Assembly: GCA_013407085.1 (NCBI GenBank)
Contig: JACCGJ010019040.1
Location: 1-64,000 of the forward strand
Direction of reading: 5' to 3'
DNA length: 64,000 bases
Origin: Atriophallophorus winterbourni
Taxonomy: Eukaryota > Platyhelminthes > Trematoda > Plagiorchiida > Microphallidae
Made by a program: the position numbers and the translations under genes. This document shows positions 10,406-53,022 of the stretch, one piece after another (positions within the stretch are counted from its first letter, which is position 1; every line of letters starts with the position of its first letter). A model generated the notes under the pieces. It had not been told where the DNA came from. It worked only from the letters and a program-made list of their open reading frames with translations, and searched no databases.

Positions 10406-10529
10406 ATGCACAAATATTAATATTAATCCGATATGTATAAGATTCGTGAATAAATCTACTTCCTCAAATCATTAAAACCTTATACCACAATGGTCGAAGT
10501 GTAATAGTCTCTAGTTATACATATTAGAA

Positions 10530-11128
10530 CAGAGAAAACATATAACTGTGTTGCACTCCATCAAGAATGAAACCGACGTGATCAGTGGTGTACCCCAAGG
10601 TTCGGTACTTGGTCCTCTTCTATTGCTGATTTTCATCGATGACTTGTCCTCTGCATTGAAGTGTCCATACTTCATTTTTGCGGATGATGTGAAATTCATC
10701 GGATCAACGGACGAAGATACCTTGATGCATGACCTTGAACGGGTCATAAACTGGTCACACCAGTGGGACCTCCCACTTAATCTTAATTAGAGCCAACTCT
10801 TGTCAGCACTGGTTGATAAGATTTCAGTTCAGGTGTCGGGCAATTCTCTCACTGTAAGCGCCACACAGCGTGTTAGAGATTTAGGAGTACTAGTTAGGAC
10901 GGACTTCAAATGGGAGGACCAATGCGCCGCTGCAGCTCAACGTGCTCGCAAAGTTCTCTTTCGGCTGAAATCCGTGTTATCCAGCAGAAGACCCGATGTA
11001 TTCCTGCCCCTTTACAAGGCATTAGTTCGGCCGCAATTAGAATATTGTGTCCACGGAAAGAAATTCTGGACGCTCGATTGCCTCGTTCGCCACCTACTGT
11101 CCTGTGCAACTGAACTGAACTGAAATGA
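10530..11128 (+). pseudogene. LINE reverse transcriptase fragment with AACTG tail
   Basis: Two open stretches (10548-10790 and 10800-11123, split by a stop) give one RT piece: SGVPQGSVLGPLLL, IDDLSSAL, the catalytic FADDVKFIG box, then RDLGVLV and LVRPQLEYC. After LEYC it jumps to the family's 3' UTR and tail, so the C-terminal ORF part is deleted. It is a dead copy of the same family as the preceding element. Confidence 0.85.
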
Positions 11129-11338: not shown

Positions 11339-11366
11339 ATGGCCTCACTTCGAGTTGCTTTCCGCA
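11339..11366 (+). CDS. DyP exon 1 (start codon, presequence)
   Basis: Encodes MASLRVAFR plus one base. The donor is gtgagc, followed by a 46-nt intron with a T-rich end and ttccag acceptor. The first open-frame alternative, running through without this intron, lacks an ATG. The spliced form gives a typical mitochondrial-type leader, so I chose it; this first junction is the least certain of the seven. Confidence 0.68.
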
Positions 11367-14300
11367 GTGAGCTTTCCCATTTATTGTTATTCGAAAGGAA
11401 TTTCATTTCCAGCTCTGAATAAACTTGCGAAAGCCTCTATTCTTTTTGCCGGAGCTTCAGGTGTTACATACGGTTTAATTACGAATCGTGACATAAAAAT
11501 CCATTCCAAGACCAACCCTTTTACAATGGTTAATTGTGCAGTTAAAAATCCAGCGCAAAGTTCTGTAAGATTAATCAAGTAAAATAATTTTAGGTCATCA
11601 ATGGATTGAAAGAACATGCCCTTTTTCTGACGATTCATCTCAAACCAGGAACATCTCCTCAAGAATGTCTGCATTCACTTGGGTTAATGCAGGTACTGTT
11701 CAAAAATTCACTTGTGTTATAAAATCGTCAATAAAAAACTAAATTTTTCAATGATAACCGGTTATGGAAAATTTTCATCCATATCCCCTGAATCTCTACC
11801 ATTTAGCTTCACCAATTTACTGTTAAATTTTCAAATCTTTATAATCTTTTATTTTTTACGCGGCTCAAACTTTAATTCCGAGAATCTTCCGTGTATGTGT
11901 TCATTTCGTTCGCAATGCAACTTCATCTTTTCTAGGAAACGGGTCCTCTTGTATGAGATAAAATAACAATTGCTGCTACTCAATATTAATCGATACTGAT
12001 TACTTGTTTTAATCCGATATTATACTCTTTGAATTATGATTCGTGAAAATTCTGTTGTTCATAACTACTTGATATACGTCAATGATTTCACTCCTACCAC
12101 AGCAATGCTATTCGACTTATTCTGATTATGCTAATAACCTTTCTGCACGGATGTGCAATCGTGCAGCATTTCTGTGCTGTATGGCTGACATCGTGCTAAA
12201 TTGATTGGCCAACGGTAGTGAGCTGCATGCTGAAACGTGCTGGACGCTCACTAGCATTTCTATTTCACCCCTCATATCTGTCTAGGCTTGGGCAACCTGA
12301 CAGTATCTTAGCCCACGTGCAGTCTGACTGTGCGGCACTTTGCCTGGATCAGGCTTGTGTTTTCATACATACATCATCATACAATAACCTTTCTGTACAT
12401 TTGACGTTCTAAAAAATTTTTATGGCTATTTGTTCTTTACTTCAACCATAGTTCTTTTTCTTTTTTATAAATTGTGCGTTTTACATTACCGAAGTCCTGA
12501 GGTACAACACAACAAAAACTTGCTGACGGAAGGTAAACCTTTAATTTTTAGCTAGAATCTTAACTGAAATTGGTTCTGATGCAAAATTATACGGAATAAA
12601 TATGTTTTGCGTCAAGGTTTCCATGCGCTACAAAGACAAATGAGAAACAATACCGATTTTCCTTATATAAGCAACTACGAACCTAAGAACTCATCGGCTT
12701 GCTACTAACTCCACATTATCTACGAATATAGTGAACATCTGGAGTGTTTTTCCGGGAACAAACTTGGATCCTTACATAGAAGAGCAGATCGAACGTACGT
12801 TTGACAAACACTTGCTAGCTGGTTTTGAAAAAAAGATTCACCATTAAATAAAAACCGTTTTTCTGAATAACGATCATGTCGATCGCTGAACTCTGTTAAC
12901 GAAGACAATGTAATGCGCTGTACAATTGGCAACCCTCCGCCCTTTATACAGAAGCAGAGGAATTAACGGAAATTAAAATTATTCATCAAATTTTGACCGG
13001 ATGTATTACCGCCATTAGAATTTTTAAGTACTCGAACTAGATCATACTTTATATTAAGAACTAAAAGGTCAATTGTTTTCTGATCTACAAAAGACAGATT
13101 TTGTTCAAATTTTGCGAAAATTCATTAATATTGGTCAAAACTAAGTGATTTTCGTACATAAAAATTTATGTATCCTATGGAATACTAAGTGCAGTCGTTC
13201 GATTCATCATTCGCTCGCAAAAGTACTTTTCATTGGCACCAGCCTATTATTTGACACCAGTGTTCTCGAATTGTTCGTGCTTTAATGATAAATCGATTAA
13301 AAATTCGAAATGATGCACTTGACCGCTTTGATTTCTTCAGTGTCATGTTCGTAGTAATCTCTTCGTATCTAGTAAACACCACTAAATAAAAATACTGTGG
13401 TAGATATCAAGCTGGCCTACTCTATCAATTGAGTAGTTTGTGAAATTTTATTACTCTTGCTAATATCAACAATTTCTGGACCACATTAAATAATATCACT
13501 TAACATGCTTTACTTTTTTAATTTCGATTTAATTAACGTATGTATCATTGAGATGTTATGCAAAATGTCGAAAAGGAATACTTTTATCGAATTCAACATT
13601 CATGTCAGGATGTCTCGTAACACAATGATTGTGTTGTATTATATGATTTCAAACGTTCAGAGATATTAAGAGACAAAGGCCGTAGAATAGGCTTTAATCT
13701 TCTAAAACTGGAATACAGGAGCTGTAACAGAAAAGGAGAGACGTGAGATATATATATATATATATATATATACGAGAAAAAGGTGAGTTAATGAATCACT
13801 ACATTCTTCCTCGCTGCAAAATGAACATGTTGCTGAACACTATGCCTCTCGATTTCGAAGGGAATATGGATGAAGTATCTGTTGGTTCTCTTTTAAAAGT
13901 TCGTATGTTGAAGGAGTGCCGATGTTAGATTCATCCTCGTGAGAAATCGTTGAATGGTCATCTTTGTCGGTATTGTCATTGTGAGAGACAAAGTCAGTCT
14001 GCATTTCATTTGATTGTTCATCACCACGTGGGGCCAAATGTCGCAAAGAGACAGTTTGTTCTTTGCCATTACGGAGGCGCACATGTGCATACCGTGGATT
14101 ACATTCCAAAACTTCTACTTCATCAACTGAAGGACTGTACTTTGAAGGACGAGCAAACTTTTTTAAAAGAACGGTAGTTCCTGGTGAAAGCCAACTGGGA
14201 ATGGACGTTCCTGTTGCGGCCCTTCGATTGAAACTCATAAAACGTTCGTGAGGAGTTACGTTTGTAGCAGTACATAACAACGAACGGACAGAGTGCAACG

Positions 14301-17300
14301 CCTCGAGAAGTACGAATTCCCAGCTGTCTAGGGACAAATGCTTGGATTTTAGGGTTACGTTTATGGCTTTCCAAAGAGTGGAGTTAAGACGTTCCACTTG
14401 GCCATTACCTTGGGGGTTATACGGAGTTGTTCTGCTAGTCGCAACACCGCGATTGTGTAAGAACGACTTGATTTCATTGGACATGAAAGCAGAACCACGA
14501 TCCGAGTGAACATACGCGGGAAATCCGAATAGAGAAAAGAGTTGATAGAGACAGTTCAGTACAGTGGCAGAGGAAGTATCGGGACATGGGTAGGCAAATG
14601 GAAATCGTGAATACTCGTCTACTATAGTCAGAATGAATGTATTTCGAGTTTTCGAAGGAATAGGTTCTTTGAAGTCTATGCTCAATCTCTCAAATGGTTG
14701 CGTAGCTTTGATGAGATGAGCAGCATCAGGTTTATGGAATTTTGGTTTAACTTCCGCACACACGCTACATCCGGAAGTCATTTGTTTTACTTGAGTGGAA
14801 AACGGCACGTTTTTTGATCGGACATAATGTAACATACGTGTAACACCTGGGTGGCACAAGGCATCATTGAGTGATTTCAGATCCGAGGACTGTGTTGAGG
14901 CGCACGTAGCTCTTGACAAAGTGTCAGCCGCCTGGTTGTCCCTACCAGGCCGATACACAATATCGTAACGAAATTCCGATAATTCTAAGCGCCAACGTAA
15001 AATTTTATCATTTTTAACCTTGCTTTTATGCTTTTCATCAAACATAAATGCCACAGAGCGTTGATCTGTTATAAGTTTGAAGTGAACTCCAAAGAGGTAA
15101 TGTCTCCACTTACGGCAAGATTCGACGATAGCGTAAGCTTCTTTTTCGACTGATGAATGATTTTTTTCAGAAGGCGATAATGTCCTAGAAAAGAAGGCGA
15201 CAGGCCTCCCTTCTTGATTTAAGGTTGCAGCTATAGCAATGTCAGATGCATCTGTATCCACTGTCAACGGTGTTTTGGGGTCAATTGATAAAACAGCAGC
15301 ATTTTCAAGTTCCGCTTTGAGACCGTTGAATGCTTGTAACACATGAGGTGGGAGCGGGAAAGTTGAATTATGTACCAATGGAGAGATTTTGTCGGAAAAT
15401 CGCGAAATCCAATGTGAGTAGTAAGCAAACATGCCGATCACTCTTTGATGTAATTTAGTGTCGCAGGGGGGTGGAAGGTCTCGTAAAGCGCGAAACCGTT
15501 CCGGGTCTGGTTTGATCACTCCTTTGGATACTTGATAACCCAAAAGGGTAATAGTATCTTCAGCCAGAATAGATTTACTTTCATTAAACGTAAGTCCATG
15601 TTCTTTAGCAGCTTTTAAGAACTGTGAGTAATTTTCAGGCACGACGGTAACCGAAACCCCACCAACCCACGAATACCCGCCATGCCCCCTCGGCCCTCCC
15701 CTATCCCCCCCTCCTCACTCCTCCTCCGGGACTCCTCTTACACCCCATCCCCCTTCCCCCACCGCGCCCCATGGCCGCCCGCCCAACTCCCCCAAAGCTC
15801 TGCTGCACGCCCCGGATCTCCATAGTGACTCTCCCGTCCCTCACATGCTGCTCCTTATTTCGACCGCAAATGGTCACATTGTCTACGTAGGCAAAAACAT
15901 CATCCAGGTGTGCATCGCTTATGATTTTGTCAATGATCCGCTGAAAACAGGCAACAGTTTCAGTCATATAACAATTGAAATATATATTTATCTGTTTCAA
16001 GAAACACATCGATGCAATCAGCCCACCGGACTTACGTGACGAATCCGATGAAATTTGGTATGGGGTCGGATTCGGCCCGCATTTTTGGGATGAAGTCAAA
16101 AAAGGAAACAAAGCTGACGCCACTCAACCATTCACATACCGCGCGCGATCCGGTTCAAATGGCGATCTGCCTTACACAGGTGATACATCGCTTTAAAATT
16201 TTCTGTTTTATTGATAAACCATAATCATACATTTTTACAACCTTCATTTGTGCTTCATATGTTGCTTATTATCTGAATCTTTACTTTCCTTAGATATACG
16301 TTGCACGATTTTTACCCTAATGACACTATAACCTCCTCAACCTCGCGTTTTCGGTTTAACTATCTATTAAATTTTGATTCACACCGTAAAGACAATAATT
16401 CATCGTTACCCAGGTTGACACTTGAATCCCGAAGCACGAAAGTGCGCCATGTGGTAAAGCGCTTATTATACACATGACAAAGAATAGAACACGCGCCCAT
16501 CATTGATAGACGAATATCTTAACCACTGTAAAATTTCGGTGTATTCGTGCCAGTTGTTATTTCGAGGTGATCTGCCTGCAGCTTGTTTCGATCCAGCTCT
16601 CGTCACGTTGCACTCGCTAGACTAAACTGGCACATCATTTTCCAGCACGTATTTTACGGCATGCTGGTGTTCCACAGGCCGTCCCAGAGCTCTTGGTTGG
16701 CTTCCTTCACCAATGCACCTTATGCTTTTCAACAATATCTTACTCTCTGTATTCTTGGTGATTCGACATTGAAGGTGTTGATTGGCACGTAGGCTCCTAA
16801 CATCTTTAATCTTGCTTCCATTCTAGTAAATACGCAACACTGTGCCCATTGGCCTGGTTGCCTCCATCATTCTAATTTCACTTCAACTTTGCATCTTATT
16901 GTTCAATCGTTTTTATGTTTGGCTGATTGACTAGAACTTCGCGTCATACTTATAAGGTGGTGTCGTGAAACGATACACATTAATTATAGTAACAACCACA
17001 GAAAAAGTGTCATTCCTTGAATCTGGTGAAGTTGCGCAGTATTTACTTGGTTGTTCATAAGCCAACATGCTATCATGTTTCTCGAATCAAGACGATATAG
17101 AGGAGAAGCCACTGTGTCTTGTCATGAGCTGGTTTTCCTCGTGCACTCTATTCCAGATATACCAGATAAATATAAACCGTGTGCTTTTGTTAATCAACAA
17201 CAACTCAGCTTCACAATTTTTCAGAGTTTTGTCCAAATTCTTTCAATCGATGAATTCTTGTGAATAAACTGATTTGCTTACCAACACCGTGATGATGAAC

Positions 17301-20300
17301 CATCCTACGCTACTATGTCAGCTCAGCTCAGCGAACACAAAACACCCAGCTAAGGCCTGGCTTTTAGCGTATTACTATATTCTATTGAATTTTCAAAATG
17401 ATATTTGTTTAAGCAACCTATACCGAGTAATACGGACGTTCAAAATTAATCCCACCACTTAGAACAGCACACTGAATCGCTTACCAAGGACTGACCATGG
17501 CTAAAATGGGATAATATTCCAGCTGGCTTCCAGTTTATTAGACTGTAGTTCGTTTCCTGATTTCGCACTTGTAGTTTGATAAAATTTACGCTATCTCAAT
17601 CTGGCATCGATTTGCTCCGGGAGAACTTTGGGATGATTTTTATGGCTAAACCATTAGTTCAATTCACTTAGCCCACAGCTGCAATCAAGTATCCGGAATT
17701 TCTCTCAGTGGAATGCAACTGAGTAGTATCCACCACTGCCAAAGTTGTTTTTTGTCCGTCGTTATCCTCAGCATATGCTACAGGCGTTGATACTTTGAGA
17801 GTTATCCAGTCCATCCTTCGGAAACACAGATTCTTTTAGCTGTGCCTAAACAAGTAAGAAAAAGTTTCCGTTCAATGTGCTGGTGGTTGAACAGACACCC
17901 AAAACCATCCAATTTCGATATTTGTGCTGAAGAAACTGTTGGATATTTCGCGCTAATGACAATTGCTTTGGAATTTATCAACCAATAAAATGTTTGTTCT
18001 GTGTATCTTGATAAATCATTTCTTAATCACAACAACTCTTATCATCTATGTTGATTTCATGGCATACGCTCCTCATTTGCCTCTTTTATAACGTTATGGC
18101 AACCAACACTTGGTTACCCTAGAGATGTTTCCTATAAACCAGTGTTATAATCTTATGCTAAAATTCAATGAACCTGGGCTGCAACCGATAGGCACTATAG
18201 CAACAACGTGTTTTTTCAGTGTATGCAGCATTTCTTAAAAATTGAGACCTTTTATGTAGAGCCTGTCTAAGCATGTTTGAAAGCTTCTTCTGTCTACATA
18301 AACAAGCGTTGGCTGTTTGAACGTGTTTAGCTAGGCAGGGTGAATTCACAACAGTTTATAAACGCTTTCAATGGGTAAATATTTTTATCAGGAAACATAA
18401 GCATCACACCAGATCACTACATTGAATTTGCCCTGGGTGTTTTGAGCTTGCATCAAATATACATGCCCTTCAATCTTAGTGAATCATTCATACTCCGGCT
18501 AGATAAATCCATTATAGTAACATCATTGCACAGAAATCGGAATTATCAGTTACCCGCATGCTGTCTTGCAATACTAGCGTGCTTAGCGTATTTTGAAATC
18601 GACTAATGGTGCTGCATAGCCTTTTGGATTTAGCCAGCCCGGATCGAGAATGACCGACGCAAATGATCCGTTATGCCGACGTTAGAGATATTGGATTTAC
18701 TCTCCAGTCTCACTTTTATTGCAGTACTTTTTAACGCAAAATTCTATACTTATGTCTCGCAGATCCTCACGTATTGTCCGTACCTGATGATTGCAAACAA
18801 AATGAAACCGGCTGTTGGTTGTGTGTGATGGAAATGCATGCAAATGAGTATCTTTCTCTACGTACTTCTGTTTTCGTTTCAGAGAGAAAGCTTTTATATA
18901 CACCACATCAAGCAGCCGCTCTTAACTCGTGCTACTCAAATTAAAGCGCCTGTTTATCGATCGTTTCCCTTTTATAGGTGGTGACATCTTCATTCATGCC
19001 AAGTGCAATGAACGCGGGAAGCTATTTGAGCTCGCTCAAGCGGTCATCAATAGTTTGCCTCGTACAGCGGTAGCTAGTTTCGAAGATGTTTACGGGTGGA
19101 CCTATCGCGGTGGAAGAGATCTGTCGGGTTTCATTGATGGTGAGTGCTGCTGGTTATATCGAAATCGTGTTGTCAAATAACATGGAATTTTAGAGAGACA
19201 CATGATCTTGGTGACATGTGGTGCACAACTTGTCACTGATGAGCATTCTGGATTATTGCTTGCCTTGCGTGCCTATGAAATGATTTACGCTTTGTTAAAC
19301 ATCAAAGTACCGAAATATTTGTTCATTTCTCACAATCCTTTCAATTATTCAGCCGGGTCTAGTGCTCATGCTCTTCAACGCTTTTTGCTAAACCAATCAA
19401 TCAATTTCAATATTTCTATTTGATGACTAAAAGCGTGTGGCTATCCCAGTTACGTTACCATCGACAGCAGTTCAATAGCGAAGTAGTTTTGAGGTTGACG
19501 AGACGTTCTACTCTGCTAATTGTACATTCAAAAAAGAATTCGGAACTCTGATAGATTTATGGTAGAAAAGGCAATAAGTTTAACAAAAAAACAAGAAATA
19601 AGACATTTGCCTCATCGCTGGAGTTGTTTGACGTCATAGGATACGCAACACAACTATCTGTAATAGAATCGGTGGTTGCGATGTAGATATTGAAAAACAA
19701 GTTAACGTGCATATACTTCGCTGGTAAAGCCACGTATTGTAACTGGGAAATCATCGTTTCCCTAACGCGGTTTTGTTTGCCACTCCTAACCCGGAATGAC
19801 TTCGTTCAAGCAGATGAAGGTTTTGACTGTAAATCTAGCTGCAGTTGGGGCGACCTGTATCTGGGGTTATGGTCCAAAAGATCATGTCCACACTGACTTC
19901 TTACCTTTATTCATAAGGCTCAAAATTGTATTCAGAGGCAGTCTTGCTGTAGACATCTTGGAGAGTTTGATTGTATCCAAGTGTCTAATCTTCCACAAGT
20001 TCATTGATATTTTAGATGCCACTCTTTCCCATCATTTCACGATTTCATCATGACATGGCTGCACGGCAGATAAGCACACGGTACTTGTTACCGGTGTAAT
20101 GTTGTCCAGGATGATAATGATGCTGCTGCTAGTGTCATTGATAATGAACTTAATCGTAGGGTACATTTCTATTCAGGTCGTACTCGAGTTTTCTCAAACA
20201 TTTCGTAAATTCTTCTTCGTGATACTTTCATGTATCTGGGTTGAGAACCTTTTTGTCATTAACCACTCAGCTGGTATCCAAATGTCTTTTCTGATTGACA

Positions 20301-23300
20301 ATTTGGTGCACGATTCTGTCGATTCCATCTGCACCGGCTAATGAGGATCGGTCACGTGTTATCAAGGTTGTGTCGAGAGCGCGCGCTCTGTTTGAAACTC
20401 AATTACACGAATCAAATCGTTTAACTTCCTGCTTTTGGTTCGGATGAATGCCAAGGATTCAAAGATTTATGATTAAAAAAGCGAACACTTTACAACGCCA
20501 CATGATTTCGGTATGAATTAATAGAGTCTATCAAATGTTTGGCTAACGGATGATGTTCTTCTGCATATCTAAGTCCAATTTTGCGTTGAATCTGGTCATG
20601 TGTGCAGAGTCTACCACATGGAAATTCCAGAAGCATATATCACGCACGGCAACAAATGCCACCGACAATCAATACGTGAACTTAGGAGGCAGAGGAATAG
20701 TGTATGTCCGGGTGTCACTTTCTCGCCACACTTGAAACAATTGTGCGCAATCCATGCATATTAAATTGCATTAGGCATGAAATTTGGAGCCGATTCATGG
20801 TTTTCGTGGTTTATTCGATCGAAAATTCTTTATGTATTACAGTATCTCCGTTAAATAAGTGTGGCAATTATGTGTCTGATATGGTTCAGTTCGCTGTCGC
20901 TGAGGTTGGCACAGTTGTCTGTAGTCGGCATCACATGCTGTGCTGTACTTGTCATCCACATGATGAACAGCATTACACCGGAACCATGTACAGAATGATG
21001 AACTGTGAAATCCTAAAAGAAGCGGTAGTGTGGGACTTAGATAGCTACGGATTCTATTGAAAAGTATGCACAAACGAACTGGGATGAGGTGCCTACACTC
21101 GGAACATTTAATCAAGTTTCGTGAACGAATAAAGCAGCATTAGCACGACAGCTTCCTTGCAGCTTTTACTGTCATGCATCATAACAAGCTTTCCTCGTTA
21201 CTCCACTTGACAGCATTTGAGATTAAGCAAACCATCCGCGAAGATACTTAGCGCATGACCGCAACTGAACACCGTTTGTAACTAACCGCCGCGATATCTA
21301 ATCGCGAGGACCACAGCCAGGAATATGTGCTGCGCCGACTTTGAAAAGATTACTAGTAAGGGTTTTTAGCTGCCAATGCCGTGTGACGGTTTGGCAACCA
21401 TGGGATTTAGGCCAATCGGGATGTGGCGTCTCAAAAAGAATCCGTTTCGGAAGTCGGTGGTTCGCTATCTGTAAAACGCGACCCAACAAGCGTTACCTAT
21501 GCACGTTGATCTGCTTCTGTGTGACGACATTACTACCGAAAATCTTATTTAGCAGAGCGTCGTTGCGTATGCGACTGTAAAAGCTAACTCCCCAAAACGC
21601 TTTGCAGACATCGGTTTTCAAATACTTGGAGATGCCAAATGTGCTCTTTAAGTAAGGTTCAAGTTTCGCACTGATACATGTTCGGTTCGCCCTCAGTGTG
21701 CAATCGACAACGTTCGTGCGAGTCACGCCTGTCGCTGTGGGGAAGACTGTTCCTCCCGAATCGAACTACGCTTATGATGTACATCCCTGGTTGATATCGA
21801 CCGGAGGAGGCTAACAATATACATGTTTGAGGGAGGCAAACCACCCAACAGGCAGAGACCGCACGGTCTGTTGAGTACACAATACCAAAAGAGATATTTA
21901 CGACAGGAATAATAGCAGTTAGCGTGCAGCATGGTGCTGACCGAAAATCGTTACCCTCGCCACTCAGTATAGCACGAAGTTATATGCACTGGGTAGAGGT
22001 ACCACATAATTGTACATCTGTGTACCACAATATTCAGTACCCGGTGTATTCACATTTGAAACCATGAATGTTGTTTAAACTTATCGTCCAACCAATCACA
22101 TATGAATTATTCCCGCATGTCATTTGAGTCAACCAACATGCCCGAGAATCTTTATATAATTAAAATGTAATATCTTTTTCCCGTTTCGATTTATATCCAC
22201 GTATCAATCATCACGCAACTTTACATTTGCTGCCCGTGAAGTCAAACAATCGTTCTTGCCATTGAATACGTAGAGAACTTAGCTTTGCACTCCACTACAA
22301 TCTACTTGCTAAGAACGGATGACGTAGTCTTAAAATCTATGTTCCTAATCATGTGAACTTAAAGGATCCGTTCAAATTATTAATAAAGTACGAATTCTTT
22401 GCTGATGAAACAACAATACGAACACCACCACCCATGAGCGTAGTTACTGCTCGAATCATCCGCGGTAGTTCTTCGTAATATTTCAAGTGACTTGTGGTTT
22501 TTTCTTCCCAGGAACGGAAAATCCCGCTGACGAGGACGACCGTATAAAAGCTGCCATTGATCCTAAAACCGGTGGAAGCTATGTGGTCACTCAAAAATGG
22601 GTCCACAATCACGATTTGATTCGATCAACCAAAGGTAAATGACTTGTACCAATTGGAGAGTCTGTGGCAGACGGAAAACAAGGATGATTGTGTTTCCTCA
22701 TCAATATAAATGGATAGTTTCTTGTTAATTTTCAAACACCCAACTGCTCTTATCAATTCATCGCCCTCCACATGATGCTCAAAACGGTCTCAGTAATTCC
22801 CCTGAAGTACCGTAATGTGATTGAGTTCACAGGATAATTCGACCTTGTTGACCTCGAACTCATTGAAGCTTACGTCATCACCAGGAGCAACATTAAACCG
22901 ATCGCGTGTACCAAATGGTTATCTATCACACAACCGTGACAACCGCAGAATCGGTAAAAGTGTAAGCACAAACAAACTGAGATGAGTTGCATACACCTAG
23001 AATTAAATCAGGTTTCGCAAACGAGTACAGCGGTTGCTTTCGCTGCAAGATATCATCACAAGCTTTCCTCTTCACTTCACTATACAAAATAGAAGATTAA
23101 ACAAGACAATCCAATGGACATGTTTAGTTCAAAACCGCCAGTGAACACGATTTGAAGATATATCTGCAAGCGATAAAATCTACGATATAAAATCGCGAGG
23201 AAAGCAGCCAGGAAGACAGGCTGCGCCGACTTTAAAAAGGTTACTACTTAGGATGCTTATGCCACATGGCGGATCGCCTTATACGACTTCCACGCCAATC

Positions 23301-26300
23301 GGGATGTGGCGTAGCACAAAGAATCCGTCGGTAATCTGGCAGCCGTAAAACGTGACTCAACCTGCGTAACATGTGTTGATCGTTCTTTTTCTCTACATCA
23401 ACGTTATCGTTTCAGTTAGCCAATTTTGTACTTACCCCGTTGTTCCATATGTAACATTCGATAGTTTACTTAGTGGTGGATGTTGTTTATCGTACACAAT
23501 TTACCTCGAATTTCGCAATATTTCTGTATAATCTTTTCGACCTTTCTGTGTTACTCGCTTAAATAGCCTCAACGTAAGACCAAGAGATCATCACGGACTA
23601 GATCTGTATTTAATCCTTCTGCATTTCTTTCGCATTACACACGCAACCCTTTATTCAACTTTCGATATTGGCATATGTAGACGGATTTTCCTTGTTGAAT
23701 GCACGTGATATGAGTTATAGTCAGACGGGGTGCATGTCTAAAGAAACCGAATCAAGCGCTTTAGTTCACTTGAATCGTCCGCGCCGAGAAACAACCTAAT
23801 CTCCCGCAGTGAAACAGCTGATAGGACATTCGGTTGCACCTATCGCGCATCGTGCTCAACTTGCATCCCCATCGTCGTCAAACGCAAAGCGAGTGTCACC
23901 AATTGCTTCAGAAATAAATCCTATAACCGTTCACCCAATCTCATAACAGGTTTAGTTTTCTGTTAAGAAAAGTCTAAAATCAACGCCTAATCAATACGTT
24001 CCACTGGCTTGATAAGGAAGAATCAATCCTGTGTGATGAACAATCAGCTGAATTTTTTTCGTTTAATCGCGCCAACCCTTCCACTGATCCAAAAATCACA
24101 CTTCGATGCGCGAATTTTTGGGCGGCGCATGCAATTAATCCGCTATCGTTCGCGAGTCTTGTGACGACCTTTTTGAGTAACATCCGCAGGCATTTTTTCG
24201 GCCAGAAAACCAACATTCCTAAATACAGTTAACTTATTTGCTAGCAATTTCCAGTGACAAATATATATATTCATATTTTAAGGGCTGAGAGGGATTTTGA
24301 CAAATCGATGTGTGTGTTGACTTCCTTCGGTCGATGTCGACCATGGATGTACATCACAATCGCTTGATTTTTTCATACTCCACAGCTTTTCGAATGACTA
24401 AACATTCCGATTCTGAAGGAACAATCTCTCCCGCAGCGATGGCAACGATAGTCAGAACTCGGTTGTAGGGCATCAGTTGTGCGCCGGCGGCGTGATCTGC
24501 GTTCAGCAGCCAAGAGCTGTATCTTCTCCTCCTCCACAGCTTGCAAACAACGCTTTACACAATGCCTCCAATGTGAGCGGTCAAGAGCAAGTTCTTCCCA
24601 ACTCATGCGGTAATTTTTGTCAGGTCAACCGCAGCCAAATTGCATATACTGTTCGACTGCCTGTTGCGTTGTTTGCAACTGAATCCAATATAGACCCTTC
24701 CACCCTGAGGTCAACCTGTCCGACTCGTTCACACACGAATCCCACAACACAAAAGAAAACTGATTGGCTAAACGCACTTGCCGCGCACATGATGAAGAAC
24801 ATAGCCAACGCCCCTCTTATACAGACAAATCTCGCGGTCACAACGCTGTCCTCGACATGTCACTTCGAGCTGATTTGCCAGTCGATTGCGTGCCAACCAG
24901 CTCGGTTCACGATATCACCACCCCGGGCTCATTTGACGGAATTGAATGTCGTTCAATAGTGACTGACTTTGTGTATCTCCTCATCTTTCCGAAGATGTTG
25001 TCGCTCCAACTGTTCTCATGCAATCCTTCCAAACCCATTCTCTTTTCTCTGTCCCTGGTCTCGCGTTGTCACGGAGCGTGATGTTCTGTATACCATCCGA
25101 GAGAGGGTGATTATCACTTGTCGCTCATGCCTTTCACGCCTCCGAGACATCTCACTCTTGTTTCTTGTCAACCGGTTTGCTTACGAGTTGAAGTCTCCCA
25201 GCCCGAAGGAATTGAGCTCCGATTCTTCATATCGTGTGTGCATTTGCACTTCTATTCATTATTGATACGTTTGTTTCCCAAATAATATATATAAACTTAG
25301 TAACAGTTTCAGGGACATCAAAAGTTTTTCCGTTTCTGTTCATCGCTCGTATAAAAAATCGGAGGCACATTGGCACATGGCATTTTATGCGCTCTGTGTG
25401 TTCGCCATCTATGATTTCATTTTCGCGCTTTTCACAGACTCACAAAAGGAACAATGGATTGGCCGTGACCTTGCCGACAGTACCGAACTCAAAAACAAGC
25501 CCATCACCTCGCACGTGGCCAGAATGGTCGGATGTGAGTTACCCCGCTAAGGCCACCGTTGTCAGTGCGTTCTGGATTGATCTTATTCAAGTTACACATG
25601 TGATAAATCGTGGTCGCATTCACACATTTCAGAGCAACGTAGTTTTCGAAGGAATCCGCTAAATTTGATTTGTCTCTGTAAACGTGAAATATTACACTCC
25701 TGGGATTACGTTGAGGAGACTAGTTATTAATATCTAGGGGCGAATTAATCCATATTAACAGCCCCGCTTTTATTCCAAGCTAGTTATTTCGGCTTCCTAC
25801 TTGCTACAGCCTCATAAAACCCATTACTGGTTCAGAAGTCCATATTGGCATTCCTTTCCATCACACAAACACTCCAGGACTTGTTTCTTGCAGTGTGCAT
25901 TCATCAAGTTGGGACAGTAAGATCAGAATCAACACGCTTTGAAACAGACGAGAAATGGTAAACAACGTTTACTTTGAACTTGTAAGCCAATGTTGAATAA
26001 AGCCGGCGTGACCAAACTGTTCACATTTCCATAATATCCATCTCGCTCCTCCTCGAGGAGCGCTTGTCATGTTGCATCAATACTCACTTCTCTTGTCGTT
26101 TGCTAAATGATACCGAGGCACTTCAACGACCGACGACATTTTCAATGATGGTTGATGGTTACTCTATGCTGAAGCTTAAATCCGGATTGTCGCAATCGCC
26201 ATGTTTCGCCGTCTAGTCGCTTCAATGTTTACGACACTCTTACTGATTCTCAAAAAGCAAATCTTTCATCATCAAACCTACCATGGCATCGCCGCTTCTT

Positions 26301-27636
26301 CAGAAAATTGAAGTCTTATCAAGTTTGTCAGAGATTAAAGACTGATTACAGAGAATTTGAATGGCAGTCGATATTAGAACGTCTTTCTATGTGCCTAAGC
26401 CGCAAGTTCCCATTTAACTGCATTATTCATTCAAAACTTTTCGATAGGATGCATTTATCAATTCCATTTCTATTTTCTTCCTCATATCCGCCTAGGCCTA
26501 GAAAACCCCATAGTATCTTCGCTCACGTGCAGTCTATGACTGTGCGGCAGTTTGGCTGCATCAAGCTTGTGCTTTCATACATACTAAGAAATTGTAAGGC
26601 TTTCTTTTAGGGCTGACCACAAGCACGACCAAAATGTATTATTTAGCCTCCTATTTTTAAGTACACAGAGGTAGTGTGGACTACAAATGAGGTTTTGTAC
26701 AGTTGTATACTTTACCATGGTTCTTTGTTATGTTATATCGATTTTAAAAAGCGAATTACTATTTTACTTAAACACTCATTTGCATTCCCATCACACACAC
26801 CCCACTACCGATTTCGTGCTGTGCCCTCTCATTCGGGTGTGAATCAGTGGTGGAACAGTAAACAAGTTGTGCTTGTATGCCACTGTTGGGCAAGGTCGGC
26901 ACGACCAACCTGTTCATTCACATGTGCCAAAACACAAGTCAATGGATTAAACACATGATCATGACCGACAATACTCATTTGTATGCGTTCCCATCGCGCA
27001 CACACCACGACCGGTTTATTGCTGTTTGTATTCAGCAGGTATGTATGTATGTATAGACGCACAAGCCTGTTCCAGGCAAAGTGCCGCACAGTCAGAGACT
27101 GCACGTGGGCGATATTACTGTCGGGCCTAGACAGATATGAGGGGGGAGATAGAAATAGAAATGGTAGTGAGACTCCAGCGTGTTTCAGCATGCAGCTCAC
27201 TACTGTTGGCCAAACAATTTAGCACGATGTTAGCCGCAAAGCACAGAAATACTGCACGATTGCACATCCGTGCACTATTCATCAGGTAGGGACTGTATGG
27301 TCACGGAACGCATGCCTTGTTTACCATTTTACTTGTTTGCCTGTTTACCAAGCCGCGGATTACGACGCACCTGCGGTGTACCAAATTGTCCGCCACTCTC
27401 AACCGTGGGGCACGTTGTCTGGACAATCGGGATTGTTTTTCATCGCTTACACAGCTTCACCAAAAGTTTTCGATTGGATGTTGGATCGAATGACCGGTGA
27501 TGGGAGTGACAAACATGCTGATGATGTGATGCGCATGACTCGCTGCTTGACCGGCAACTATTGGTTCTTTCCCAGTCAAGCTGAGTTCAACCGCGTCGTT
27601 GCAGGTGGTGGCAGTGCGTTCCGACTTTGGCGTTAA
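11339..27636 (+). CDS. DyP-type (dye-decolorizing) heme peroxidase, 8 exons, 373 aa
   Basis: DyP peroxidases bind b-type heme and reduce hydroperoxides while oxidising a second substrate. Join: 11339-11366, 11413-11564, 11594-11692, 16002-16179, 18978-19139, 22512-22634, 25438-25533, 27353-27636. Every intron is GT-AG and every phase matches (1,0,0,1,1,1,1). Residues about 1-30 form a Ser/Arg/Lys-rich, acid-free presequence. The DyP domain starts near NPAQSS (55-60) and has EHALFLTIHLKPG (67-79), YGVGFGPHFW (113-122), GGDIFIHAK (153-161) and the signature GFIDG (203-207; D206 distal acid). The likely proximal heme ligand is H273 in TSHVAR, the distal Arg R293 in IVRHSQPWG. The C-terminal strand is GLFFIAY and the chain ends YWFFPSQAEF...RLWR. 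Length and motifs fit B-type DyP plus a leader. The ATG at 11339 is the first in frame after an upstream stop. Expression is untested. Confidence 0.9.
11413..11564 (+). CDS. DyP exon 2
   Basis: Completes Thr10 and encodes residues 11-60. These are a short hydrophobic stretch (ASILFAGASGVTYGLI), then a linker, then NPAQSS, which matches the Pro-Gln-rich start of DyP domains. The donor is gtaaga, phase 0. The following intron is 29 nt. Confidence 0.8.
11594..11692 (+). CDS. DyP exon 3
   Basis: Thirty-three codons (residues 61-93) between an attttag acceptor and a gtactg donor. It holds the first ferredoxin-like beta strand (EHALFLTIHL) of the DyP fold. Phase 0 on both sides. Confidence 0.85.
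12138..12400 (+). repeat. Interspersed repeat E, copy 1 (in DyP intron 3)
   Basis: Shares long stretches with the reverse complement of 27032-27276 (for example gtgctaaattg, agctgcatgctgaaac, cccacgtgcagtct). A shorter copy is at 26455-26585. Open frames in it (12218-12412) are repeat-borne and carry no domain. Confidence 0.75.
12401..13742. other. Intron 3 sequence, nothing recognised
   Basis: AT-rich, with no open frame of interest and no internal repeat found. The LTR of the adjacent minus-strand Gypsy element may lie in its right part, but no partner copy allows delimitation. Confidence 0.4.
13747..13773. repeat. TA microsatellite
   Basis: Perfect run of TA dinucleotides just downstream (element sense) of the Gypsy pol end. 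Confidence 0.95.
13840..15975 (-). pseudogene. Gypsy pol (RT end, RNase H, integrase), 5' truncated, in DyP intron 3
   Basis: The minus strand from about 15975 reads VACFQRIIDKII and VFAYVDNVTICG (RT; YVDN replaces the usual YxDD). A GC-rich block interrupts it, then a 600-codon frame (15642-13840) runs. RNase H: TVDTDASD (D131), EKEAY (E168), ITDQRS (D193), then ADTLSRA. Integrase: H264/H272 and C292/C295 as a zinc site, catalytic D323 (SIDF), D381 (HSDRGSAF) and E417 (NGQVERLN), the last two spaced D35E. It ends HPYSLRNREA. The RNase H and integrase part is free of stops, so this is a young copy. Gag, protease and most of RT are missing at the right edge. The first in-frame codon of the 600-codon frame is not a real start. 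Confidence 0.9.
15645..15842. other. GC-rich low-complexity block inside the Gypsy RT
   Basis: About 200 bp, very C-rich on the + strand (runs such as tatccccccc and cccccttccccc) in an otherwise AT-rich window. RT similarity breaks exactly at both edges (NKEQH on one side, ENYSQFLKAA on the other), so the block is inserted. No similarity to anything else here. An assembly error or a foreign insertion are both possible. Confidence 0.75.
16002..16179 (+). CDS. DyP exon 4
   Basis: Residues 94-152 plus one base, including the conserved VGFGPHFW segment. The acceptor is tttcaag and the donor gtgata, which is the weakest donor of the set. Residue order across the junction gives PYTGGDIF, as expected in the family. 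A Gypsy remnant ends about 30 nt upstream of the acceptor. Confidence 0.88.
16180..18977 (+). other. DyP intron 4
   Basis: No coding feature recognised. A reverse copy of repeat B lies at about 18740-18850 (gaaaccggctgttgg, then aaatgcatgcaaatgag). Short open frames at 16583, 17051 and 18158 have no domain. Confidence 0.55.
18978..19139 (+). CDS. DyP exon 5 (GXXDG half)
   Basis: Acceptor ttatag, donor gtgagt. Encodes GGDIFIHAKCNERGKLFELA onward to SGFID. The catalytic Asp codon (D206) is the last whole codon, and Gly207 is split across the intron. Confidence 0.93.
21061..21480 (-). repeat. LINE 3' region, direct-repeat copy 1 (intron 5)
   Basis: Matches 22958-23350 over about 400 bp with many substitutions. 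Shared words include caatcgggatgtggcgt, aagaatccgt and caagctttcctc. The minus strand at 21489-21298 reads LGRVLQIANHRLPKRILF and AHIPGCGPRD, the C-terminal end of an RTE-like LINE ORF. Confidence 0.75.
21481..21930 (-). pseudogene. LINE ORF2 C-terminal remnant (intron 5)
   Basis: Continues upstream (element sense) of the preceding entry. Minus-strand frames near 21726-21493 give YLKTDVCKAFWGVSFYSRIR and NVVTQKQINVHR, which align in order with the LINE segment before WLGHVLRM. Several frameshifts. Confidence 0.6.
22512..22634 (+). CDS. DyP exon 6
   Basis: Acceptor ttcttcccag, donor gtaaat. Starts TENPADEDDR directly after the split Gly of GFIDG, the usual continuation in DyPs. It then has GGSYVVTQKWVHN, a conserved strand. 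Phase 1 on both sides. Confidence 0.93.
22958..23350 (-). repeat. LINE 3' region, direct-repeat copy 2 (intron 6)
   Basis: Second copy of the 21061-21480 segment in the same orientation, about 1.9 kb away. DyP exon 6 lies between the two copies. It is more decayed than copy 1, with no usable reading frame. Confidence 0.72.
24364..24606 (-). pseudogene. LINE ORF C-terminus with zinc-finger-like CxxC
   Basis: The minus strand reads LALDRSHWRHCVK, a basic stretch, then CHRCGRDCSFRIGMFSHSKSC and a stop. This is the C-terminal zinc-finger tail seen at the end of many LINE polyproteins (DRxxWR ... CxxCGRxCxSRIGxxSHxxxC). No RT is attached, so it is an extremely 5'-truncated copy within DyP intron 6. 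Confidence 0.72.
24640..24930 (+). repeat. Interspersed repeat D, copy 1
   Basis: Shares the run cacaacacaaaagaaa and following words (ctgattggctaaacgca; then tcgagctgatttgccagtc) with 29840-30200 and 49960-50160. Open frames over it are repeat-borne. Confidence 0.7.
25438..25533 (+). CDS. DyP exon 7 (proximal His)
   Basis: Acceptor tttcacag, donor gtgagt. Encodes KEQWIGRDLADSTELKNK then PITSHVARMVG. H273 is in the position of the proximal heme ligand. A longer open frame overlapping it (25234-25662) is in another frame and lacks similarity. Confidence 0.9.
25830..26015 (+). repeat. Palindromic repeat family B, copy in intron 7
   Basis: Contains the family words: tccatcacacaaacactcc, cattcatcaagttgggacag, taagatcaga, ttgaaacag, gtaaacaacgtttac, aagccaatgttgaataa. 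Diverged copy. Confidence 0.6.
26455..26585 (+). repeat. Repeat E, partial copy
   Basis: Shares ctcatatccgcctaggcc, cacgtgcagtct and gactgtgcggca with the two fuller copies at 12138-12400 and 27032-27276. It ends in the same catacatac motif. Confidence 0.7.
26780..27031 (+). repeat. Repeat family B, two partial copies
   Basis: Tandem of two starts (ctcatttgcattcccatcac and ctcatttgtatgcgttccc), each followed by a cacgac/cactac-cggttt-like core. Between them are the gccactgttggg and gaccaacctgttcattcacatgtgcc words found in other B copies. Confidence 0.65.
27032..27276 (-). repeat. Interspersed repeat E, copy 2 (inverted)
   Basis: Reverse complement of 12138-12400 with moderate divergence. 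It directly precedes DyP exon 8. The two long antisense frames over it are repeat-borne. Confidence 0.75.
27353..27636 (+). CDS. DyP exon 8 (terminal)
   Basis: Acceptor tttaccaag and stop TAA at 27634. Encodes residues 281-373 (Ser280 is split): IVRHSQPWG with distal R293, SGLFFIAYTASPKVFDWML, then the C-terminal heme-pocket region with GNYWFFPS. Confidence 0.93.
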
Positions 27637-27798: not shown

Positions 27799-27804
27799 AA
27801 TAAA
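27799..27804 (+). promoter_or_regulatory. Poly(A) signal AATAAA
   Basis: Canonical hexamer 163 nt after the DyP stop codon, in AT-rich sequence. It is the first good candidate for the end of the transcript. Confidence 0.6.
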
Positions 27805-35988: not shown

Positions 35989-38740
35989 TTCTTCTTCTTC
36001 TTCTTCTTGATAGACGACAGGGGGTCAAGCCCTTGTAATCCGCATCTCTTTATATCAGCAACATAGTCCAGGAGAACCTCAGTTGAAGAAATCCTGTCTA
36101 GTGTTGTTCAGCTCCGCCGTGATTACAGGCAATACCTTATCCAAAAGTTGCTTGAATTGGTTTTCAGAGCTCGCTGAGATAACCTCTTCCGGAAGCGCAT
36201 TCCACAAGTTAACAATTCTTTTTGATAGCGTGAATCCCTGTGGTAGACGTAGTGTCCTTCGCTTTTGAAGCTTTAGAGCATGGCCACGGGTTCTTGAGTC
36301 CGTCACGAGAGGGAAAAACTCGCGCAGCTCGTCACCATAAGCTCCCAGTAATATGCGACGAGTTAGCAGCAGGTCGTAGCGCACACGCCGAATACTGAGC
36401 GACATGAGGTTGAAGCGTTGAACTCTCTCCACATAAGGAATTGATTTCAATCCTTGTACTCGTTTCGTCGCCCGCCTTTGCAATTTTTCCAACTGGTCAC
36501 GTTCTCCCTTAGTTTGAGGATAGGTGGCTGGCAAACCATATTACAAAACTGGTGTCACGTATATTGAATAAAGAATGCGAAACATTTGTGGAGTAATCGC
36601 CGAAAACGACCGACTAATAGCCCACCATGCGCGGTTTGCAGCAGCAGCTTTTCTGTTCGTATATTCCTTCGATTTAAGCGTCCTAGTCACAATTGTACCC
36701 AGGTCACGTTCAGTATCAACCCACTTCAGTTGATGATTCCCGAGGAAGTACGCACCTTCAGGCGTGCTTGGCCCCAAAAGCATTACAGCGCATTTCTGTC
36801 GGTTTACAGGAAGCTGCCATTTTACCGTCTAATCAAGCAATTTGTTCAATTCGTTCTGGAAAATGGTATTATCAGCAGAAGAGCTTACTGTACCCCAAAC
36901 TTTCAGATCATCCGCGAAAAGTAGACAATTCGTATTTAATGAGTCGGGGAGGTCATTAACATACACTTTAAAAAGTAACGGGCCGAGAACAAATCCTTGT
37001 GGAACCCCGGAAGTTGGACGTGTAACCTGCGATTTGACTCCGTTAACCTCCACCTGTGTATAACGGTCAACAAGGAAGTCTTTAATCCAAGTTAGAACAG
37101 GTCCCCTCACACCACGAGCACGAAGCTTGAGCAATAGACGTTGAAATGGAACACGGTCAAAAGCCTTACTGCAGTCAATGAAGGCAGTGACTACCGGGTG
37201 ACCCAGATCAAGTTCAGCACACCAGTGCTTGCGAGCAGTGATGAGATTGGATGAGCATGATCGTTTTGACGTAAAACCATGTTGAGCAGATGTTAACTGA
37301 CTGGTTGTAAGGAGAAAATCTTCAATCTGTTTCTTCAGCCGTCGTTCCAGAGTCTTCACAACTACCGCAGTGAGGGTAACCGGTCGGTAGTTAGCCGGAT
37401 CACTGGTTTCACCGCCCTTATACATTGGATTGACAATGCCGTACTTCCAATCTTTAGCTAACCTACCATACCTCAGGGATAAATTGAAGATTAGCGCCAG
37501 TGGTTTATGTATGATACTCGACAATACCTTTAAAAGCATCGGGTGTATATCGTCCGGGCCAGGTGCTGAGGGTACATCGAGTCGTTCTAGTAAATACTGC
37601 ACCATCTCTGGCGAGATCGAGATAACCGGCATTTCGGCGTTGCTCTCATGAAGCAGAGGAATGGGAAACGTCTCCTCTGTGTAAACCGAATTGTACTGAG
37701 CGGCGAGAAGAACTGCTTTACGTTCATCTTCATGTTCAGTCGAACCTCCGATAGATCTCAAGCAAGGTACTCGTTGAGAAGCTTTCGTTCTACGTCTCAT
37801 GTACGCAAACAAGCGTTTCGGCATCGAGTTGGCTCCGTCCACCAAGCGAGTTTCATAGTTCTGCCTTTTTTCTCTTTTGAGGTAGGTGCACTTGTTGCGG
37901 ATAACTTTGTAGGTTACATAGTCATCGGTGCATCCACTAGAACAAAACTTCCGCCATAACCGCTTTCTTACCTTCATGTATTTACGGATAAAGTTATCAA
38001 ACCACGGCGGTCCCTTAGCGGGGGATCTTCCATTCATCCATGGGCATGATTTTCAAGCGATCTTATTTATCCAAAAAGTCCAACCAACAGATATCAACAT
38101 TCGTAGATAGAGGGAGTGACCAGTCCATCGAGTTTGCAGACGTGATTAGACTCGTTGTGTCTAATTTCCAGTAGTTTCTCCGGGCATGCGTACGTAATCT
38201 CGGTTGAAGACCCCGATTCCAAACGAACCATAAAGAATAGTGATCGCTGCAGCCAATGGGGGTCTCAATAGACAGATTCGTAACATCAGAGAATCTAGGT
38301 GTGACCACCAAATCCAATATTGAAGGAACTTTCCCGACGCATATCCTCCTAGGATCGTTTACATTCTGCACCAAATTCAGCTCCAAAATCGTATCTAGGA
38401 ATTCTCGTTGGAACGGTTTACCCCTCGAAACTAAATCCGCCCAGTTTATATCAGGAGCATTCAGGTCTCCAAGAACGATACAGTCACGAGTAATACCATA
38501 CCGTTTGATTTGATCACATAACACAGGAGCGTAAGCGCCAGGTGAGCGGTAAATGACCCCAAGTGATGCAGCTCCAGAGCTAGACTTCACCTTACACCAG
38601 AGGCTTTCGGCATTTCCAGCATCATTTTGAAACCTTCCCAATACTTCCACAATCAGGTGCTCTTTAAAGTATACGGCAACGCCACCGGCAGATCTCGAAG
38701 CTACTCTGTCACTTCTGAAACTAAATATAAAGAGATACAA
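35989..38740 (-). pseudogene. CR1/Jockey-like LINE, nearly full EN-RT, few lesions
   Basis: Minus strand. Endonuclease (38740-38063): AGGVAVYF, GVIYRSPG, VLGDLNAPDINW, SILDLVVT and CSDHYSLW; its first strand is missing. RT (38037-36829): PSAPGPDDIHPMLLKVL, NYRPVTLTAV, AFIDCSKAFDRVPF, SGVPQGFVLGPLLF and FADDLKVWG. Thumb and C-terminus (36783-36079) include RDLGTIV and LWNALPEEV. The three RT blocks are in one frame split by two in-frame stops; the endonuclease is one frameshift away. The 3' end has an AAG-unit tail (35989-36009 on the + strand as TTC). Too damaged to be active but young; ORF1 is absent. Confidence 0.92.
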
Positions 38741-39639
38741 ATCAATTTGTAACCTTCGACTTGTCCATCCAAATTTGTATATCCTAACCGGTGCACTTGG
38801 CCAGATACGAAATTAACGCTTTTATCGTTTACATTTTATCACCATTTTACATCCACGAAATCCCTATAATCAATTTTAGAATTTTCGATTGAATTACATT
38901 TTGAAGCGTAAAATTTCTGAAACATCAGTGAAAAAGGAAACATTAATGAAAGAATGCTTCAATCGTTTAAACGAGTTTTCAGTGAATCAAATTAATTTAG
39001 CCACATAAATTATAAATACGAATAAGGTATACGAGAGAGAGTTTAATGGGAAAATTTCACATTGCCAGTCACTTAAAATTCCCAAACAACTTCGGTTTCG
39101 ACTACAGCGGCATCAAAGTTGGGATGGAAGTTGACGAAATGTCAGGCTGTACGATTTTTAAAACCCCCATGTACAAGTTTTCTTTCGTATTTTTCTGACC
39201 GGCGTAACAAATTCCCTTTTTTTCAAAATAAGAATTTGCACTGCATTGAAAGCGTGCAGGACATCAAACGTTCGTAGTTAACACAGAAACGTTATAGCGT
39301 TGCAAACACCAAAGGCTTCAGTTTTGACTGAAACAAATAAAGATGCATTGAAAAATAATTTTGAGCACGGCCGATTCAAAGCAATGTTGATATGGATTTA
39401 TCTGTGAAACGGGTCGATATATTTCAGAATGAGAGTTGGCAACGCCCTTGTAATCAGTCGAACGAAATAAGACGTATTAAGATTGCAGTATAAAATCTCA
39501 TCTCTTGTAGTGTACTTGCCACTACAATAACGTCCCGTGAATATAGGAGAAAAGACACAGGACGATAAAAATTTTATGGCGGTAAATAAAACGTGTACAA
39601 CGGTACATAAGTAGCAGTTACGTTGCACGCGTGAACGGA
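38741..39639. other. Spacer, no gene recognised
   Basis: AT-rich; the minus frame 39628-39398 shows no domain. Confidence 0.45.
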
Positions 39640-52749: not shown

Positions 52750-53022
52750 GTCCAAACAAACTTAAAATGGCTCCCATTAAGTTTATATCTAGTAACCCGT
52801 TTGTTGACAAAACGCAGCAGATTAAAAGATGGGTGGAGCGCTTCTCCTCTCTATACTCTTGGGACAGTATGGTTTTACCGCTTGCACTTCAAAATGTTGA
52901 GCGGATGACAAACAATAAACATCTAGATACCGTATATACTAGATACTCCTGATGAGTTCAATAGGGCAATCGACCGCATAGCGAATGGGAAGGCACCTGG
53001 TGACAACGGAATTCCACCTGAA
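52750..53022 (+). pseudogene. RTE/CFDP2-like LINE, left part, split by a LINE
   Basis: Reads FVDKTQQIKRWVERFSSLYS (52801-52860), then DEFNRAIDRIANGKAPGDNG and IPPE, where similarity stops abruptly at about 53022. The natural next residues (ELI) are found at 56116, after the inserted LINE. Confidence 0.85.

What the first reader, a model, noticed from the sequence alone, without database searches (positions are those of the whole stretch)
11339..27636. Complete DyP-type peroxidase gene, intron-split, in a flatworm-like genome
DyP peroxidases are mainly bacterial and fungal; I recall no characterised animal member. Here eight exons with GT-AG junctions and matching phases give one 373-residue protein. 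It carries GFIDG (D206), TSHVAR (H273), IVRHSQPWG (R293) and GLFFIAY in the right order and spacing. Exons were found by family motifs and none of the longer single-frame ORFs shows the gene, so an automatic annotation could miss or split it.
Basis: partly seen in the sequence, partly recalled or inferred. Interest (0 to 1): 0.9.

Follow-up and report, generated by a model that had tools for sequence, protein, structure and literature searches.

The report
Fluke DyP-type heme peroxidase gene
This is a real, intron-split gene for a DyP-type heme peroxidase in a fluke-like genome, but the same enzyme is already recorded in many flukes and other invertebrates, so it is a new member of a known animal family and not a surprise.

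Summary
Eight exons at 11339-27636 (+), with GT-AG introns and matching phases, give one open 373-aa protein. It passes TIGR01413 (1.2e-40), PF20628 (1.7e-29) and PF04261 (5.3e-06). Fluke orthologues place exons 3-8 independently; exons 1-2 are less secure. The idea that this is unusual for an animal fails: of the 120 best of 686 relatives, those with an organism name are animals (flukes, tapeworm, Macrostomum, molluscs, hemichordates, Trichoplax and others), several already called DyP or YfeX-like. Fluke DyPs have been in print since 2009. In a 60-row tree the 36 non-bacterial rows are separated from 24 bacterial rows by a 100/100 branch, which argues against a separate gain in flukes, as a 2015 review proposed; no protist was sampled. 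Most scored relatives carry a leader that is basic-rich (77 of 95) with a hydrophobic stretch (80 of 95); exons 1-2 encode it here. Best reading: a YfeX-like heme peroxidase, probably mitochondrial and perhaps membrane-anchored. Reaction and location are inferred.

The parts
11339..11366 (+). Exon 1 (28 nt): start codon and first part of the leader; the least certain exon
   Evidence: GT donor and phase match with exon 2; gives a basic, acid-free start like that of orthologues
11413..11564 (+). Exon 2 (152 nt): rest of the leader (hydrophobic stretch) up to the QSS at the start of the bacterial-like part
   Evidence: AG/GT borders, phase 1 in; alignment
11594..11692 (+). Exon 3 (99 nt): start of the N-terminal half of the domain (EHALFLTIHLKPG)
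   Evidence: tblastn with P0002 E 1.2e-9
16002..16179 (+). Exon 4 (178 nt): VGFGPHFW region
   Evidence: tblastn with P0002 E 4.5e-18
18978..19139 (+). Exon 5 (162 nt): GDIFIHAK and GFIDG, with D206
   Evidence: tblastn with P0002 E 1.9e-26
22512..22634 (+). Exon 6 (123 nt): TENP and GGSYVVTQKWVH
   Evidence: tblastn with P0002 E 1.6e-19
25438..25533 (+). Exon 7 (96 nt): WIGRDLADSTEL and TSHVAR, with H273
   Evidence: tblastn with P0002 E 4.5e-10
27353..27636 (+). Exon 8 (284 nt): IVRHSQPWG with R293, GLFFIAY, C terminus and stop
   Evidence: tblastn with P0002 E 1.2e-38
27799..27804 (+). Possible polyadenylation signal AATAAA
   Evidence: pattern scan of the sequence after the stop

Best explanation
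The gene encodes the trematode orthologue of the animal YfeX-like DyP peroxidase, inherited within animals and not a recent bacterial arrival. The mature domain (from about residue 56) should fold into the tandem ferredoxin-like DyP fold and bind heme b through H273; D206 and R293 on the distal side would split hydrogen peroxide to compound I, which then oxidises a small reductant or porphyrin-type substrate (residue roles recalled from bacterial DyPs). The leader (exons 1-2) most likely directs it to mitochondria, possibly as a membrane-anchored protein. Shown: gene structure, family membership, conserved residues, fold of a close orthologue, tree position within the rows sampled, character of the leader. 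Inferred: heme binding, peroxidase activity, location, substrate. The confidence below is for the gene and family reading; the mitochondrial location alone I put at about 0.65.
For: Exon structure. TIGR01413, PF20628 and PF04261 above their cut-offs. D206, N210 and H273 identical in 20 of 20 aligned rows (query and 19 of the 120 proteins), R293 in 19 of 20, the exception being a gap in the broken model P0028. Solved bacterial DyPs matched at up to 9e-37 with D, H and R aligned in the two alignments shown. AlphaFold model of the Paragonimus orthologue: mean pLDDT 84.5, first 60 residues at block means of 42-50; Foldseek best hit 7yzt (Acinetobacter DyP), E 2.5e-28, TM 0.89 by target. The 36 non-bacterial rows are separated from 24 bacterial rows by a 100/100 branch and the query groups with Paragonimus and P0001 at 98/82. 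Leader: 77 of 95 scored sequences basic-rich, against 235 of 2400 random domain stretches; 75 of 95 without acids in the first 25; 80 of 95 with a hydrophobic 17-mer. In 19 of 24 bacterial ORFs used in the tree the first Met lies at or just before the domain start; in the other 5 (L005, L013, L042, L067, L075) the script's first Met was not informative.
Against: No transcript was available. Exon 1 is small and introns 1 and 2 are only 46 and 29 nt; if exon 1 is not used, the first Met is residue 48 and most of the leader is lost. No targeting predictor was run, and this query's own hydrophobic stretch is modest (17-mer mean 1.38). 18 of 95 leaders failed the basic-rich test and 15 of 95 the hydrophobic test; 25 of the 120 proteins were not scored (17 lacked the anchor motif, 8 were short or did not start with Met). 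Opisthorchis DyP was found in excretory-secretory product as well as lysate (0.4% each, passage of PMC9751068), which a purely mitochondrial location does not predict. PF04261 alone is a modest match (26.9 bits against 20.4).
Confidence: 0.85

Rival explanations
1. The trematode DyP was acquired by horizontal transfer, from a lower eukaryote or a bacterium, separately from other animals.
For: PMC4420034 (2015, passages seen) states that Schistosoma DyP-B genes were acquired by transfer from lower eukaryotes. In the tree the flatworm rows are not one clade: the tapeworm falls outside the other animals and Macrostomum groups with Priapulus at 83/81.
Against: All 36 non-bacterial rows (31 named, 4 unnamed, the query) lie on one side of a 100/100 branch. 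Holding the flatworms together is not rejected at 0.05 (p-AU 0.078; trematodes plus tapeworm 0.36). A leader of the same kind is seen in molluscs, hemichordates, Lingula and Watersipora. No protist was in the tree, so an old transfer into the animal stem, or a protist donor close to animals, is not excluded.
Confidence: 0.06
2. The protein is secreted or tegumental (the leader is a signal peptide or signal anchor) and serves at the host interface.
For: DyP seen in Opisthorchis excretory-secretory product; S. mansoni Smp_160550 clusters with transcripts of stages that interact with the intermediate host.
Against: The leader is about 55 residues long, and in 77 of 95 scored homologues, many of them from free-living animals or unnamed sources, its start is basic-rich. 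An equal share in lysate (0.4%) fits leakage of an internal protein.
Confidence: 0.12
3. The open frames are pieces of a decayed gene that is not expressed.
For: Long introns, one of them holding a retrotransposon fragment; no transcript data here.
Against: No stop or frameshift in 373 codons and intact splice sites; catalytic residues kept; AATAAA downstream.
Confidence: 0.02

Closest known systems
Trematode DyP-type peroxidases (Paragonimus P0002, Schistosoma including Smp_160550, Fasciola, Dicrocoelium, Opisthorchis)
   Same: Same domain and residues, and a similar leader in the full-length models; 48-70% identity for the named fluke rows
   Different: Sequence only; schistosomes also have diverged paralogues, while this window holds one copy; the rest of this genome could not be searched
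Animal YfeX-like dye-decolorizing peroxidases (molluscs, hemichordates, Lingula, Trichoplax and others)
   Same: Same domain and, in the full-length rows looked at, mostly the same kind of leader; 44-53% identity for named rows outside flatworms
   Different: Position 294 beside the distal Arg is H here and in most of the non-schistosome flukes aligned, Q in most other animals aligned
Bacterial YfeX/class B DyPs (PDB 7yzt, 5de0, 5gt2, 3qnr; class labels recalled)
   Same: Fold and D/H/R constellation
   Different: No long leader in 19 of 24 bacterial ORFs examined; 25-31% identity to the Paragonimus model among the Foldseek rows listed
Dictyostelium DyPA (PDB 7o9j)
   Same: Eukaryotic DyP with the same fold (phmmer 9.5e-29; Foldseek 3.8e-26)
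   Different: Lower sequence score than bacterial 7yzt (103.7 against 130.1 bits)

Membership tests
DyP-type peroxidase superfamily | Curated family models above cut-off | tested here: met
   TIGR01413 139.8 bits (cut-off 100.5), PF20628 103.2 (20), PF04261 26.9 (20.4)
DyP-type peroxidase superfamily | Distal GFxDG Asp, distal Arg, proximal His ligand (roles recalled from bacterial DyPs) | tested here: met
   D206, H273, R293 aligned with 7yzt and 5de0 and conserved in 20, 20 and 19 of 20 rows
DyP-type peroxidase superfamily | Tandem ferredoxin-like fold | tested here: met
   Tested on the Paragonimus orthologue (70% identical over 87% of the query), not on the window protein itself: Foldseek E 2.5e-28 to 7yzt
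DyP-type peroxidase superfamily | Heme binding and H2O2-dependent oxidation of dyes | not testable with these tools
   Needs purified protein
YfeX-like (class B) DyP | Closest to YfeX/class B members, and Ser two residues after the distal Arg in place of Asn (recalled) | tested here: inconclusive
   Best solved hits carry names such as deferrochelatase, iron-dependent peroxidase and DypB, and R293-H294-S295 is present; class labels are recalled and no tree with classes A, C and D was built
Mitochondrial protein | Cleavable basic presequence and import | tested here: inconclusive
   Leader character only; no predictor, no experiment

The most novel reading that the evidence does not exclude
An ancient, animal-wide, membrane-anchored mitochondrial DyP peroxidase, missing in vertebrates, stands in for an absent peroxide-removing heme enzyme in flukes (trematodes are recalled to lack catalase; not checked here). 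It would be the first animal DyP with a defined cell compartment and role, and the published idea of a transfer into schistosomes would be wrong.
Probability: 0.3. Interest if true: 0.5.

Novelty: new member of a known kind. Interest (0 to 1): 0.2.

Why it matters
PMC2764848 describes DyP enzymes as not present in vertebrates and lists them as anti-schistosomal candidates, yet the passages I read give no biochemistry for an animal member. A clean gene model adds one more orthologue. The shared leader suggests a simple, testable hypothesis: a mitochondrial heme peroxidase across invertebrates. The tree also argues against a separate gain in flukes, within the sampling used.

Tried and rejected
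Looked for a second DyP copy or decayed paralogue in the window: none. Considered bacterial contamination: rejected because of seven GT-AG introns and the position among trematodes. Tested flatworm monophyly: not recovered in the free tree and not rejected, so the branching inside animals is left open. Asked for DyP genes in the window's own genome: not completed, so copy number in the genome and the species are unknown. Paper search for dye-decolorizing peroxidase with mitochondria and molluscs: no paper. YfeX with mollusc gave three papers that I did not open. A six-term search needing any two terms was mostly noise.

Full report
Observation. All seven introns are GT-AG, the phases match, and the 1122-nt coding sequence runs from ATG to TAA without an internal stop. 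Coordinates are 11339-11366, 11413-11564, 11594-11692, 16002-16179, 18978-19139, 22512-22634, 25438-25533 and 27353-27636 on the + strand. From these, introns 1 and 2 are very short (46 and 29 nt) and introns 3-7 are 1.8 to 4.3 kb. tblastn with four proteins (P0001, unnamed; P0002 Paragonimus; P0005 Schistosoma japonicum; P0010 Calicophoron) against the window recovers exons 3-8 in order; exon 3 is weakest with P0010 (E 6e-4). An AATAAA lies at 27799.

Family. The protein passes the curated cut-offs of TIGR01413, PF20628 and PF04261 and matches 42 distinct PDB sequences at E up to 0.001, best 7yzt at 9e-37. In an alignment of the query and 19 of the 120 proteins found, D206 and H273 are identical in 20 of 20 rows and R293 in 19 of 20; the gap is in the broken model P0028. 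The AlphaFold model of the Paragonimus orthologue has mean pLDDT 84.5 and a low-confidence leader, and its best Foldseek hits are bacterial DyPs (7yzt, E 2.5e-28, TM 0.89 by target length).

How common it is. The protein search gave 686 proteins at E up to 0.001, of which the best 120 were listed. Those that carry an organism name are animals: trematodes (Paragonimus, Schistosoma, Trichobilharzia, Dicrocoelium, Calicophoron, Fasciola, Opisthorchis), a tapeworm (Rodentolepis), Macrostomum, many molluscs, the annelid Paralvinella, Lingula, Watersipora, Tubulanus, Priapulus, three hemichordates and Trichoplax. Several are named 'Dyp-type peroxidase' or 'dye-decolorizing peroxidase YfeX-like'. The gene is therefore a new orthologue of a known and annotated animal family.

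Literature. PMC2764848 (2009, passages) names Smp_160550 as a DyP-type peroxidase and says the family appears to be expanded in Platyhelminthes and not present in vertebrates. PMC3125140 (2011, one passage) has Dyp in the legend of its figure on proteases, antioxidant enzymes and stress proteins of Clonorchis. PMC3512318 (one passage) repeats the candidate list. PMC5302490 (passages) reports a mussel gill protein matched to Trichoplax DyP. PMC4420034 (2015, passages) reports Schistosoma DyP-B, says it was acquired by horizontal transfer from lower eukaryotes, and says functionality must be proven. PMC9751068 (2022, one passage) finds DyP in Opisthorchis lysate and excretory-secretory product. 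PMC11879061 (2024, passages) names a DyP gene among eight ovary candidates (written Smp_314200 in one place and Smp_312400 in another) and calls the orthologue uncharacterized. Their listings showed me no title about a purified animal DyP, but I opened only these seven papers, in passages, and the library lacks most subscription journals.

Origin. A maximum-likelihood tree of 60 rows (the query, 35 of the 120 listed proteins, and 24 of the 80 bacterial loci kept) separates the 36 non-bacterial rows from the 24 bacterial rows with 100/100 support. That branch is about 1.84 changes per column long (0.39 and 1.45 on the two sides of the midpoint root). The query groups with Paragonimus and P0001 at 98/82, and the ten named trematode rows with the query and three unnamed rows form one group at 89/89, which is not starred. 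Flatworms as a whole are not one clade in the free tree; holding them together is not rejected (p-AU 0.078), nor is trematodes plus tapeworm (0.36). The tree has two long bacterial rows (L053, L075) and three rows with odd letter make-up (L042, L049 and one schistosome row). It speaks against a separate gain by flukes. It does not settle how animals first got the gene: no protist was included, and the bacteria were those most like the animal set.

Leader and location. In 19 of the 24 bacterial ORFs the first Met lies at or just before the PQxxI-like start of the domain; in the other five the script's first Met was not informative. Full-length animal proteins in the alignment add several tens of residues before that point, about 55 in the query. 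Of the 120 listed proteins, 17 lacked the anchor motif used and 8 were short or did not start with Met. Of the remaining 95, 77 have a basic-rich first 25 residues (against 235 of 2400 random domain stretches), 75 have no acid there, and 80 have a hydrophobic 17-mer. In the window exons 1-2 encode this leader and end almost where the bacterial-like domain begins. I read it as a mitochondrial leader, possibly with a membrane anchor; that is inference. Presence in Opisthorchis excretory-secretory product is a point against.

Surroundings. Intron 3 holds a Ty3/gypsy-type pol fragment with RNase H and integrase domains on the - strand (13840-15714), and a reverse transcriptase fragment lies just upstream of the gene (10515-10790). 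The other introns were not screened for mobile elements. Long introns of this kind can split automatic gene models, and four public fluke models do look broken.

Verdict. The unanswered biology is the compartment and substrate of animal DyPs.

Noticed in passing
13840-15714 (-): Ty3/gypsy-type pol fragment (RNase H and integrase core domains) inside intron 3 of the DyP gene, opposite strand, open for 624 aa.
   Followed up: partly
10515-11123 (+): Reverse transcriptase fragment (RVT_1 at 10515-10790; no family for 10791-11123) directly upstream of exon 1.
   Followed up: partly
52927-55908 (+): 993-aa open frame with endonuclease- and reverse-transcriptase-like stretches; looks like a non-LTR retrotransposon ORF (by eye; no family search run).
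   Followed up: no
36079-38812 (-): Further retrotransposon-like open frames (153, 407 and 249 aa, by eye).
   Followed up: no
11367-11412 and 11565-11593 (+): Introns 1 and 2 of the DyP gene are only 46 and 29 nt, while introns 3-7 are 1.8-4.3 kb (coordinates).
   Followed up: no
homologous proteins P0004, P0009, P0011, P0028: Public fluke DyP gene models that look mis-joined or truncated when aligned.
   Followed up: partly
schistosome rows of the tree: Two diverged schistosome DyP groups besides the orthologue-like one, pointing to duplication within the schistosome line.
   Followed up: no
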